From NCBI RefSeq assembly GCF_003945595.2, contig NW_024104421.1, positions 7,378,001-7,442,000 of the forward strand: a stretch of 64,000 nucleotides of DNA, read 5' to 3'. Of this stretch, positions 52,107 to 64,000 are shown one piece after another. The notes under the pieces were generated by a model that worked only from the letters and a program-made list of their open reading frames with translations, was not told the DNA's origin and ran no database searches. The translations under genes and the position numbers were made by a program. Numbering within the stretch: the stretch's first letter is position 1; each line of letters opens with the position of its first letter. The DNA comes from Pipra filicauda. Lineage: Eukaryota > Chordata > Aves > Passeriformes > Pipridae.

Positions 52107-52501
52107 GTCCGTGCCCAATGTCACCCGCACGGCCCAGCAACAGCCGCGCCCATTGGAGCCGCCGCCGCCTTCCGGGGCGGGGACACCGCGGGGCGGGGAT
52201 ATCCCGGGGCTCGGAGGCTCCGCGGGGCACAGGGATATCGCGCCGCTGTCCCCGCACACCTGCCCTGCCCAGCACTCGGGAGCGGCGCGGCGGCACTAAC
52301 CGGGGGCTGCCCGTGAGTCCCACAAGTTGCCGTCGCCCACGGAGGTCGAAGAGCGGGGAGACTTCCCCGGCCAAATCGCCGCTTTTGGGGCTCGGGGAGA
52401 AGGCGGCGCCGGCTGCTGGTCTCTAAGGAAGGGGCTAAAAGGAGTCAGGCGGCCGTGTGTCCATCCCTGGGCGCCCGGGGTGGTCCAGCCCGCGGAGTGC
52501 G

Positions 52502-52514
52502 GTTGCGTAGCAAC
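52502..52514. promoter_or_regulatory. X-box (RFX-type binding site), perfect palindrome
   Basis: gttgcgtagcaac is a perfect inverted repeat GTTGC-GTA-GCAAC. It fits the RFX X-box pattern of two GTTGC/GCAAC half sites with a 1-3 base spacer. It lies about 400 nt upstream of the NDUFB2 start and about 300 nt before the first annotated exon of the + strand gene. Likely donors gtgagt (52313) and gtgcgg (52631) bracket it, so it could be just upstream or just inside that gene's first intron. Confidence 0.65.
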
Positions 52515-62100: not shown

Positions 62101-64000
62101 TAACATCTGCTCCTTGGTGCTCTCCTTCAGTTTCTGAACATCACACATTGTGCTTTATGACAGACTCTGCAGAGGGGTCACAGTGGTTCCCTAGTGGGAA
62201 TAAAAGTTGACTCTTGAGGTTTGTGGGAGCGGGTACACATGGACCCCGTAGCCTTTAGCGTTACCTCCAAGGGCAAATTCCCTTTGATCTTGTTCTCAGA
62301 CAAAAGATCCTTTGGCCTCTCAAATCCTTGCTCTCTGGCCCACAGTCCACTTAAGCTGAGCAGGACCTTGCGTTACCCCCGTGACCCACTCCTTGCCTTC
62401 TCCTCTGTTGCCTCAGTGGCTCCACCAGCAGCACACAGCCACCCGGTTGTCTGGATCAGTCCTACAGCCCTGTCTGCACAATCTGTTTCCTTGATTCCTG
62501 GTCTTCAGGGCCAACAACACTTGGCCACACCAGGTTTATGTAGTCAGATGGACAGATGACTGCAGTTAGCTCACATCAGGTACCAGCCCATTTGGGAGTT
62601 TTGCTACCTCTGTTTTGGACACAGGTTTAACCCTCATAACCTAACAAAGGGTCCTGGAATATTAACTAAGCACGCATTGCCAGAATATCTGCTTTGTGTC
62701 TCATGCACTGTCTTTTTTATTGCTCTTTCTTTATGAGAAATTCGAGAAATTTTGTTTTGGAAACAGGCAACAGTTGCGTCAGAGAACATTGCAAGGGCTG
62801 GAGAAACAGCTGGAGCACAAAGAGAGAGCTTTGCAGCACATGGCACTGCTCCAGGCTGCTGGGGCTGAGAGGAGCAGGAAGGAATCCTCCTTTCAAGAGG
62901 AGGGGAAGAGGAAGGCAAGTCAGAGGCTTCAGTTCTTAAAGACACAGAGTTCACAGAGAGAGGAGTTGCAGGCAGAATGCAATGAAAGGAGCTTTGAACA
63001 AGAGAAAGAAAGGCTGGTAAGGGCAATTCCAGAAATTATTTTCCCTTGTGCTGTGTTTCCAGCAGTGGCACTGTCTGGAGTATTTGTCTTTCTCCTGTTT
63101 TATATCCAATAAAACTATATTTAGGGATTTAAAAAAGGGTAACATTTTTTTGACATGTGTATAAAGATGAAAGATGGGAAGTAACATTCTCCATCTCTGC
63201 CATAAAAGGAGTCTTTCTGCATGCAAGGAATGAATATCCATATATTATACCCATTTCTGACTTCTACCATAGAATCATAGAGCCATAGTATGATTAGGGA
63301 CCTTGAAAGTCATCTAGTTCCAAACCCCTTACCATGGGCAGGGACATCTTCCACTAGACCAGGCTGCTCAGAACCCTCTCCAACCTGGCCTTGAACACTC
63401 TGTCAGGGATGGGGCATCCACAACTTTTCTGGGCAACCTGTTCCAGTGCCTCACCACCCTCACAGTAAAGAATTTCTTCCTCATATCTAATCTAAACTTA
63501 CTCTCAGTTTAAAGCCACTTCCCCCTGTCCTATTACTACAAGCCCTTGTAAAAAGTCCCTCTCCAGCTCTCTTGTAGCCCCTTCAGGCACTGGAAGGTGC
63601 TCTAAGATCTCCCCAGGGCCTTCTCTTCTCCAGGCTGAAAACCCCCAATTCTCTCAGCCTGTCTCCATAGCAGAGGTGCTCTTGCTCTCTGGGCATCTTT
63701 GTCACCCTCCTCTGGATTTTGCTTCAGGAGGTCCCTGTCCTTCTTATGTTGGGGGCCCCAGAGCTGGACACAGATGAAAACTGAGGATGAAATTAGGCGT
63801 GAAAGCTGACTGTACAATTGTAAATATCTTTATGTAGGAGTTTCTGAGGAGTTTCTGCAGTCACGGCAGGAAATGTTGGAACAAGAACCACGGGAGCAGG
63901 ACAAGCAACAAAACCAGCACCAGGCTGCCAAAGTGAGGGTGTTCCAGAGCGGAGACCGAAGATCGGAAGATGGAAAAAGAAGACCAAAAAATCCGTCACC
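53045..64000 (+). CDS. DUF4537-domain protein, C11orf16-like (partial, continues past right edge)
   Basis: The function is unknown. A joined model runs 53045-53116, 55037-55125, 55309-55486, 56614-56842, 57376-57935, 58834-58975, 60099-60343, 61888-62051, 62767-63016 and 63849 onward. All phases agree, giving about 690 residues so far. The N-terminal third contains Tudor/SH3-like DUF4537 signatures: VLARRETDGYYYLGHI, LAPGDRVLAPWE, FGPGTVLKVVE and VLVNFWNGQTKEV. A short later motif is VDTAVNTDSWLMETD. These match human C11orf16 as I remember it. The C-terminal part is Glu/Lys/Gln/Arg-rich and looks like coiled coil. The gene is head-to-head with NDUFB2. It is either C11orf16 moved here or, more likely, a paralogue. 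Confidence 0.8.
53117..55036 (+). other. DUF4537 gene intron 1
   Basis: 1.9 kb. Near the 3' end, a segment of about 36 bp (gtaagaaagtaaagctattc...) is duplicated in tandem at about 54525-54596. No further gene was recognised. Confidence 0.65.
55037..55125 (+). CDS. DUF4537 gene, coding exon 2 (preferred model)
   Basis: A strong acceptor (ctccttcccccttccag) and a perfect donor (gtaagt). In phase 0 it is open for 29 codons (VRSRSISHVQCCHTNKDFHG...) and leaves two bases, just before an in-frame TAG-TAA. Those two bases fit exon 3 exactly. An alternative frame starts at ATG 55111 and runs to donor gtgagg at 55204 (see findings). Confidence 0.6.
55309..55486 (+). CDS. DUF4537 gene, coding exon 3
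   Basis: Acceptor tttttgttttccacag, donor gtaact. It completes a split codon, then LPVCTWNPGPLCAPL..., and holds the conserved start of the domain, ARVLARRETDGYYYLGHIAQ. It ends in phase 0. Confidence 0.8.
55487..56613 (+). other. DUF4537 gene intron 3
   Basis: 1.1 kb without recognised features, ending in acceptor tgttttactcttgtag. Confidence 0.7.
56614..56842 (+). CDS. DUF4537 gene, coding exon 4 (domain core)
   Basis: 229 nt, starting GSRERFVIEFDKSRARKGKV. It holds LAPGDRVLAPWEARAERFGP and GTVLKVVESKEAHL. The GDRVLAPWE...FGPGTVL pattern is typical of Tudor-like DUF4537 barrels. It leaves one base and uses donor gtgcgg. Confidence 0.85.
57376..57935 (+). CDS. DUF4537 gene, coding exon 5 (end of domain, Cys-rich and acidic regions)
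   Basis: 560 nt. Acceptor after gataagcacag; this acceptor, not the earlier one at 57370, keeps phase. It starts AHNRSGVLVNFWNGQTKEVS, which closes the domain. A segment with several Cys follows (LCAKCSWEC), then a Ser/Glu-rich stretch (KKIEEELSELRITSSESVSR). Donor gtaaaa, phase 0. Confidence 0.85.
57936..58833 (+). other. DUF4537 gene intron 5
   Basis: 0.9 kb. The open frame of exon 5 runs on into it by chance as far as 58391. No other feature was seen. Confidence 0.7.
58834..58975 (+). CDS. DUF4537 gene, coding exon 6
   Basis: 142 nt. Acceptor cttgttatttctag, donor gtagtg. It encodes GAQREMAHAMVDTAVNTDSW, LMETDHKEEPESRQQDAETE and ANFKHEHG. AVNTD is shared with human C11orf16 as I remember it. 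One base is left over, which fits exon 7. Reading through the donor would end at TAA 59049-59051. Confidence 0.8.
58976..60098 (+). other. DUF4537 gene intron 6
   Basis: 1.1 kb, ending in acceptor ccctaatttatttgcaag. No further feature was recognised. Confidence 0.7.
60099..60343 (+). CDS. DUF4537 gene, coding exon 7
   Basis: 245 nt. Two bases complete the codon of exon 6, then LFESRVAEAPVQHSLRSPSL, GTSALVPFRRQSFFDQVNQS and on to LLNLLKHKSIT. Basic and Ser-rich, with no motif that I recognise. It ends in phase 0 at donor gtaagt. Confidence 0.75.
60344..61887 (+). other. DUF4537 gene intron 7
   Basis: 1.5 kb without a recognised feature. Short open frames on both strands look like chance. 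Confidence 0.7.
61888..62051 (+). CDS. DUF4537 gene, coding exon 8 (coiled-coil start)
   Basis: 164 nt. Acceptor ggcttttttcctcttag, donor gtgatg. It encodes KSILNGASQERWKEMGFDRA, KTEHERRKEEQRQLKREQQQ and EADGIQHQLHKDNQ. Dense in Glu, Lys, Arg and Gln. Two bases left over. Confidence 0.82.
62052..62766 (+). other. DUF4537 gene intron 8
   Basis: 0.7 kb. An open frame at 62221-62559 is Ser/Pro-rich and probably chance. No other feature was seen. Confidence 0.65.
62767..63016 (+). CDS. DUF4537 gene, coding exon 9 (coiled coil)
   Basis: 250 nt. Acceptor ttttgttttggaaacag, donor gtaagg. It encodes QQLRQRTLQGLEKQLEHKER, ALQHMALLQAAGAERSRKES and on to ECNERSFEQEKERL, a strongly helical, charged sequence. 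Ends in phase 0. Confidence 0.82.
63268..63775 (-). mobile_element. CR1 LINE fragment (3' end, reverse orientation)
   Basis: It starts on + with the reverse complement of the CR1 3' end (atagaatcatagagccatag...) and follows the avian CR1 consensus, including aaggccaggttggagaggg and ctggagaagagaaggccctg read on the minus strand. It lies in the intron before exon 10 of the DUF4537 gene. Confidence 0.93.
63849..64000 (+). CDS. DUF4537 gene, coding exon 10 (partial, runs off window)
   Basis: The phase-0 acceptor (tttctgag) at 63848 gives EFLQSRQEMLEQEPREQDKQ, QNQHQAAKVRVFQSGDRRSE and DGKRRPKNPS, open to the window edge. The more usual-looking acceptor tatgtag at 63837 would shift the frame and stop after 32 codons. 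The exon continues to the right. Confidence 0.65.

What the first reader, a model, noticed from the sequence alone, without database searches (positions are those of the whole stretch)
52300..64000. C11orf16-like DUF4537 gene sitting head-to-head with NDUFB2 next to BRAF: possible duplicate lost in mammals
Seen: ten phase-consistent exons encode DUF4537 signatures (VLARRETDGYYY, GDRVLAPWE, VNFWNG) and the later AVNTD motif. Known from memory: human C11orf16 has matching motifs (VLARREADGFYY, GDKVLALWE, VHFWNG, AVNTD) and sits near DENND2B on chromosome 11, while BRAF-NDUFB2 sits near DENND2A on chromosome 7. Inferred: the bird gene is the partner of C11orf16 left by whole-genome duplication, kept beside the DENND2A side and missing from the human locus.
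Basis: partly seen in the sequence, partly recalled or inferred. Interest (0 to 1): 0.75.

Follow-up and report, generated by a model that had tools for sequence, protein, structure and literature searches.

The report
Bird sister of human C11orf16
The gene beside NDUFB2 and BRAF in this bird is the whole-genome-duplication twin of human gene C11orf16, kept in sharks, frogs, reptiles and birds but found in no mammal protein we saw, and in this bird its front domain has decayed to a relic.

Summary
Ten phase-consistent exons (53,045 to a stop at 64,121, 121 bases past the window) encode a 733-residue DUF4537 protein head-to-head with NDUFB2. A DUF4537 search of the same assembly found two loci: this one, with NDUFB2 and BRAF on one side and ADCK2- and DENND2-type exons on the other, and true C11orf16 on another contig between AKIP1 and ASCL3. 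The two contigs also share DENND2, DENND5 and WEE1/WEE2 pairs, and the two genes share two introns in position and phase. A tree rooted on invertebrates gives two starred clades, each with sharks. Placing the window gene with mammal C11orf16 is rejected (p-AU 1e-6). No mammal is among the window-type rows listed.

New beyond the finding: the ancestral protein is VWA + tandem Tudor + coiled coil. Amniote C11orf16 shows neither VWA nor coiled coil. The window copy keeps Tudor plus coiled coil; its VWA lost the metal site in tetrapods and survives here only as a frameshifted relic at 52,555-53,044. Likely a methyl-lysine reader; function untested.

The parts
51251..52750 (.). CpG island shared by NDUFB2 and the window gene (candidate bidirectional promoter)
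   Evidence: GC 0.66-0.81 and CpG observed/expected 0.67-1.01 in six 250-base bins, falling to 0.08 in the bin from 53,001; promoter use not tested
51540..52106 (-). NDUFB2: start codon at 52,106 and a stretch matching human NDUFB2 residues 40-105 at 51,540-51,818
   Evidence: tblastn E 2.5e-28 with recalled human NDUFB2; start codon
6691..35297 (+). BRAF exons
   Evidence: tblastn with the BRAF part of a Turdus model, 13 stretches, 49-100% identical
52555..52631 (+). Relic of VWA exon 1, with an in-frame stop
   Evidence: IRGFALGVGM*PEAFLK in the window against MRGFTLGVGIRPEAFLKEH in the Myiozetetes model P0093; read by eye, not scored; tblastn did not report it
52801..53044 (+). Relic of VWA exon 2: homology runs on through changing frames, with a stop
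   Evidence: two tblastn pieces in two frames: 35-42 bits with Aquila, Grus, Ciconia and Apteryx VWA, 27-34 bits with Crocodylus, against a best of 22.7 bits in 300 shuffled Aquila queries
53045..53116 (+). Exon 1 of the present reading frame (MEKVAR...); in Aquila this methionine is residue 153, inside the VWA
55037..55125 (+). Exon 2
   Evidence: AG / GTAAGT, phase kept
55309..55486 (+). Exon 3, start of tandem Tudor (DUF4537)
56614..56842 (+). Exon 4, DUF4537; its flanking introns match C11orf16 introns in position and phase (0 and 1)
   Evidence: Pfam
57376..57935 (+). Exon 5, end of DUF4537 (VNFWNG) and linker
58834..58975 (+). Exon 6, AVNTD motif
60099..60343 (+). Exon 7
61888..62051 (+). 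Exon 8, coiled coil
   Evidence: long helices in the model of orthologue P0005
62767..63016 (+). Exon 9, coiled coil
63849..64000 (+). Exon 10 (continues to the stop at 64,121); the conserved C-terminal tail is out of frame here

Best explanation
This is a protein-coding gene that arose with C11orf16 from one ancestral gene, most likely in the whole-genome duplications at the root of vertebrates. Shown: two vertebrate clades, each with sharks; both copies in this bird, in matching chromosome blocks; two shared introns; no mammal and no teleost among the listed window-type rows. Inferred: loss of this copy before the mammals listed diverged, and separately in teleosts. The ancestral protein was a VWA domain, a tandem Tudor (DUF4537) and a C-terminal coiled coil. 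The most likely working: the tandem Tudor, mainly its second barrel, binds a methylated lysine (or similar mark) on histone or other partners, the coiled coil makes it a dimer or scaffold, and the VWA was an extra metal-dependent docking surface that became dispensable in tetrapods and was lost in passerines.
Against: The tree rests on 171 columns of one domain and 63 rows that I chose; the root branch has only 83/73. Absence from mammals rests on protein databases, and each search listed only its best 120 rows (of 140, 168 and 174 hits); no mammal DNA was searched. The genome search scores only its best candidates, so two loci is a lower bound. The first Tudor barrel has R or K where PHF1 and 53BP1 have tryptophan (recalled and from the alignment), and frog rows lack the second-barrel tryptophan (L or V, 5 of 5), so a methyl-lysine cage is not universal. 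In this bird both protein ends are altered, so early decay of the whole gene cannot be excluded. No expression or binding data.
Confidence: 0.87

Rival explanations
1. It is C11orf16 itself, moved or mislabelled (some NCBI models of it are called 'C11orf16 homolog').
For: Several bird models of this gene bear that name (e.g. P0030, P0035); shared DUF4537 and AVNTD.
Against: The same assembly has C11orf16 in its conserved place; the Tudor parts of the two are only 41% identical while the other copy is 88% identical to eagle C11orf16; AU test p 1.1e-6.
Confidence: 0.01
2. A duplicate made later, by a local or retro copy within jawed vertebrates, not by whole-genome duplication.
For: Only 171 columns; root support 83/73. 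No cyclostome sequence was among the listed hits.
Against: Sharks and bony vertebrates both have both types, and holding all shark rows together is rejected; shared introns speak against a retrocopy; three further gene pairs lie on the same two contigs.
Confidence: 0.06
3. In manakins the gene is a pseudogene on its way out: the VWA is broken and the tail is out of frame, and the rest is open only because decay is recent.
For: VWA relic; the tail shift is also in the Corapipo model.
Against: Exons 1-9 stay open with intact splice sites. None of 38 passerine models has a VWA match of 100 residues or more, yet 28 of them, the BRAF-fused one not counted, exceed 600 residues, so the rest seems to have outlasted the VWA; this is weak by itself, since only 7 of 45 named non-passerine bird models show such a match either.
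Confidence: 0.15
4. The protein works on ciliary axonemes rather than as a chromatin reader, as VWA3B was reported in human motile cilia.
For: VWA3B detected in wild-type airway cilia (PMC12310455, abstract and passages); long coiled coil; one ostrich model is named CFAP45-like (P0059).
Against: No kinship with VWA3B was tested here; names of coiled-coil models are unreliable; the predicted fold matches histone readers.
Confidence: 0.3

Closest known systems
C11orf16 (human Q9NQ32)
   Same: DUF4537 tandem Tudor, AVNTD motif, two intron positions and phases, paralogous chromosome block
   Different: Amniote C11orf16 rows show no VWA and this bird's locus shows no coiled coil above chance; different locus; separate clade
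Invertebrate VWA-DUF4537 proteins (Patiria, Glandiceps, Biomphalaria models and others)
   Same: VWA then DUF4537 (Patiria); the Tudor part aligns throughout
   Different: VWA metal site intact in 7 of 8 rows; they branch outside both vertebrate clades; the W after the second-barrel F is absent in 8 of 8 rows, the APW tryptophan kept in 6 of 8
Tandem Tudor readers: Sgf29, SETDB1, 53BP1, BAHCC1
   Different: 12-22% identity; the acidic stretch after the second-barrel F of BAHCC1 aligns with WNG here; binding untested
VWA3A / VWA3B
   Same: A VWA of the Pfam VWA_3 type in relatives of this gene
   Different: No named VWA3A or VWA3B of a vertebrate was compared here; kinship not tested

Membership tests
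DUF4537 (PF15057) | Score over the curated cut-off | tested here: met
   75.1 bits, cut-off 27
C11orf16 orthologue group | Falls in the clade with mammal C11orf16 | tested here: not met
   Separate clade; p-AU 1.1e-6
C11orf16 orthologue group | Lies between AKIP1 and ASCL3 | tested here: not met
   That place is held by the second locus, C738:4,049,657-4,055,964
Whole-genome-duplication twin of C11orf16 | Both copies present in one genome | tested here: met
   Two loci found, identified
Whole-genome-duplication twin of C11orf16 | Neighbouring genes paired between the two blocks | tested here: met
   DENND2 84%, DENND5 79-86%, WEE1/WEE2 on contigs C772 and C738
Whole-genome-duplication twin of C11orf16 | Duplication older than the shark-bony vertebrate split | tested here: met
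   Sharks in both clades; p-AU 1.2e-5 against one shark clade
Whole-genome-duplication twin of C11orf16 | Duplication timed to 1R or 2R with cyclostomes | not tested
   No lamprey or hagfish sequence was in the listed hits
Tandem Tudor methyl-lysine readers | Two linked Tudor barrels | tested here: met
   Predicted for relatives P0005 and P0090, with matches; the window's own spliced protein was not folded
Tandem Tudor methyl-lysine readers | Aromatic cage | tested here: inconclusive
   Second barrel W, Y/F, F, W in 13 of 13 sauropsid rows besides the window; first barrel lacks W; frogs lack W in the second, 5 of 5
Tandem Tudor methyl-lysine readers | Binds methylated peptide | not testable with these tools
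   Needs an assay
VWA_3 domain proteins | Intact VWA with DxSxS metal site | tested here: not met
   Window: relic only. Among window-type rows that show the site, 7 of 7 fish and shark rows keep DxSxS and 0 of 14 tetrapod rows do
VWA3A / VWA3B | Groups with vertebrate VWA3A or VWA3B in a tree | not tested
   No such sequence was fetched

The most novel reading that the evidence does not exclude
A bilaterian VWA + tandem Tudor + coiled-coil protein was doubled at the root of vertebrates, and both twins then shed the same VWA domain independently: C11orf16 on the way to amniotes (together with its coiled coil), the window twin first losing its metal site in tetrapods and then the exons in passerines. 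In mammals the window twin vanished, but its half of the promoter shared with NDUFB2 may live on as the human antisense transcript NDUFB2-AS1 (head-to-head position recalled, not tested).
Probability: 0.3. Interest if true: 0.6.

Novelty: new member of a known kind. Interest (0 to 1): 0.5.

Why it matters
Human C11orf16 is an uncharacterised gene read without its context. Its twin, with models from quail, duck, Xenopus and sharks, keeps more of the ancestral architecture and suggests that the human protein is the stripped remainder of a VWA-Tudor-coiled-coil scaffold. That makes a testable case of complementary loss after genome duplication, gives an outgroup for the function of C11orf16, and proposes one more gene lost in mammals. 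NCBI has models of it, but under misleading names such as trichohyalin-like.

Tried and rejected
Rejected: gene is C11orf16 moved; retrocopy (shared introns); duplication within amniotes or separately in sharks; the Turdus 'BRAF' model P0113 as a real fusion: it runs BRAF into this gene and is most likely an annotation join. Led nowhere: paper listings for C11orf16 and BC051019 gave no expression study of the gene (listings; one search showed 20 of 29); RPL27A gave no match in the 100 kb of C738 fetched; tblastn gave no VWA exon-1 match, and that relic was read by eye against P0093. My first translation of DENN exons forgot the strand and was redone; my first ends for exons 1 and 2 were wrong and were corrected. 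The typing by best score is not phylogeny: it puts most invertebrates with the window type and Holothuria with C11orf16. Model coverage of VWA is uneven: 38 named passerine rows 0, 45 named non-passerine bird rows 7 with a match of 100 residues or more (counts by my own sorting of genera, two unnamed rows left out, isoforms of one species counted apart). Not done: comparison with VWA3B, cyclostomes, mammal DNA, dN/dS, expression. Print: (listings) showed no title on this gene's origin or loss. Of papers I saw passages and part 1 of 2 of one section of PMC8986115; no paper was read whole.
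Full report
What is there. The quoted motifs are in the sequence at the stated places. Ten exons with AG and GT at all nine introns join in phase into one 733-residue frame, from ATG 53,045 to a stop ending at 64,121, which is 121 bases beyond the window. The core scores 75.1 bits with Pfam DUF4537. The nearest database protein is a manakin model, Corapipo altera, 95% identical over the core, so the window is from a bird close to manakins. NDUFB2 starts at 52,106 on the other strand and the two genes share one CpG island. 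BRAF exons fill the left of the window.

Two copies in one genome. A search of the window's own assembly with DUF4537 found 2 matches, with all 10 candidates of the first look scored; the tool calls such counts lower bounds. The second, C738:4,049,657-4,055,964 on the - strand, is C11orf16: an eagle C11orf16 model matches it in six pieces at 48-74% identity, with AKIP1 on one side and ASCL3, TMEM9B and NRIP3 on the other (neighbours found with human proteins recalled). A turkey chromosome 5 gene list has C5H11orf16 between ASCL3 and AKIP1 (PMC8470100, one passage). Right of the window lie ABC1-family exons at C772:7,447,699-7,450,785 and DENN exons at 7,497,277-7,505,526; naming them ADCK2 and DENND2A rests on the recalled human order. 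The DENN exon at C738:3,875,357 is 84% identical to the one at C772:7,505,344; a second, DENND5-type pair is 79-86% identical. A third DENND2-type copy on contig C715 is also 84% identical to the C772 copy, as expected of a family of several twins. WEE1 lies at C738:4,358,065-4,363,741 and WEE2 at C772:6,991,803-6,996,767 (query human WEE1 recalled). So three further pairs join the same two contigs.

Family tree. I took 62 of the 295 proteins that the three searches listed plus the window, and used 171 columns of the Tudor part. Rooted on eight invertebrate rows, the vertebrate rows form two clades: C11orf16 (27 rows, 100/99; mammals, crocodilians, birds, six shark or ray rows, Polyodon, seven teleosts) and the window type (28 rows, 97/96; sauropsids, frogs, coelacanth, Acipenser, gar, six shark or ray rows). 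The root branch itself has 83/73. Holding the window gene with mammal C11orf16 costs 69 log units (p-AU 1.1e-6), holding all amniote rows together 74.5 (p 1.3e-4), holding all 12 shark and ray rows together 61 (p 1.2e-5). Two introns inside the Tudor part fall at the same place and phase (0 and 1) in both copies of this bird. The Tudor parts of the two copies are 41% identical.

Who has it. Of the 120 listed rows (140 hits), none is named as a mammal; of the 120 listed rows (174 hits), none either. Of the 120 listed rows (168 hits; query human C11orf16 recalled), all class as C11orf16-type, platypus, marsupials and placentals included. The 15 teleost rows new class as C11orf16-type, while gar and Acipenser are window-type and group so in the tree. 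This is absence from protein databases, cut at 120 rows, not from DNA. Species with both types in the listings include Crocodylus porosus, Apteryx mantelli, Struthio camelus, Scyliorhinus torazame, Heptranchias perlo and Mobula birostris. Whether turtles, squamates and frogs keep C11orf16 was not settled.

Architecture and its erosion. Relatives carry an N-terminal VWA: PF13768 is over its cut-off in 4 of 6 proteins scanned that extend that far (Aquila, Scyliorhinus copy b, Patiria, Polyodon), one bit under it in Crocodylus and lower in Heptranchias. The metal-site motif DxSxS stands in 7 of 8 invertebrate rows and in 7 of 7 window-type fish and shark rows that show it, and in 0 of 14 tetrapod window-type rows that show it. 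In the C11orf16 clade 5 of 13 fish and shark rows that show the site keep it; all seven teleosts lack the last serine. The 13 amniote C11orf16 rows show no VWA, and 20 kb around C11orf16 of this bird gives no VWA match at E 1 or better and only chance-level coiled-coil matches (best E 0.40), with the Tudor part as positive control at 5e-31. In the window the VWA is a relic: two homologous pieces in order but in two frames, 35-42 bits with four bird VWAs and 27-34 with Crocodylus, against at most 22.7 bits in 300 shuffles, and an exon-1 relic with a stop, read by eye. The frame of today begins at a methionine that is residue 153 in Aquila. A Myiozetetes model reads through the same shifted frame (VLQWSVLTQQRPWSCSL; window VLQWSVLTRQRPWSCSL), so this break is shared by a tyrant flycatcher and the window bird. 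Among bird models, 0 of 38 named passerine rows and 7 of 45 named non-passerine rows have a VWA match of 100 residues or more (passerine status recalled). Since most non-passerine models lack it too, models alone do not date the loss. The C-terminal tail is out of frame here and the Corapipo model ends alike, while an antbird model (Pithys) keeps it.

Known or new. NCBI carries automatic models of this gene under names such as trichohyalin-like and C11orf16 homolog. My paper searches (listings) showed none on its origin, its relation to C11orf16 or its loss. It is a new member of a known kind: a genome-duplication twin that I found undescribed in that library.

Noticed in passing
63270-63770: Intron 9 holds a stretch that reads like the 3' part of an avian CR1 element (recognised from memory).
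   Followed up: no
63930-64121: The conserved C-terminal tail is out of frame in the window, and the Corapipo model ends alike, while an antbird model keeps it: perhaps a manakin-level change at the protein end.
   Followed up: partly
54529-54594: Two tandem copies of a 33-base unit (taagaaagtaaa...aagaattg) in intron 1, seen by eye.
   Followed up: no
G000 C772:4846876-4859562 and C738:4207647-4215093: A DENND5-type pair on the same two contigs as the DUF4537 pair, 79-86% identical: the paired block is wider than the DENND2 neighbourhood.
   Followed up: partly
P0113 (Turdus rufiventris model): An annotated BRAF protein that runs on into this gene's exons; most likely an annotation join, but it shows the adjacency in a thrush.
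   Followed up: no
58873-58887: The AVNTD motif outside any domain is shared by both twins and, as a T-D variant, by most invertebrate rows; it may be a docking motif.
   Followed up: no
P0288, P0286, P0292 and other teleost C11orf16 rows: In all seven teleost rows of the tree the VWA metal site has lost its last serine, a third place where this VWA seems to erode.
   Followed up: no
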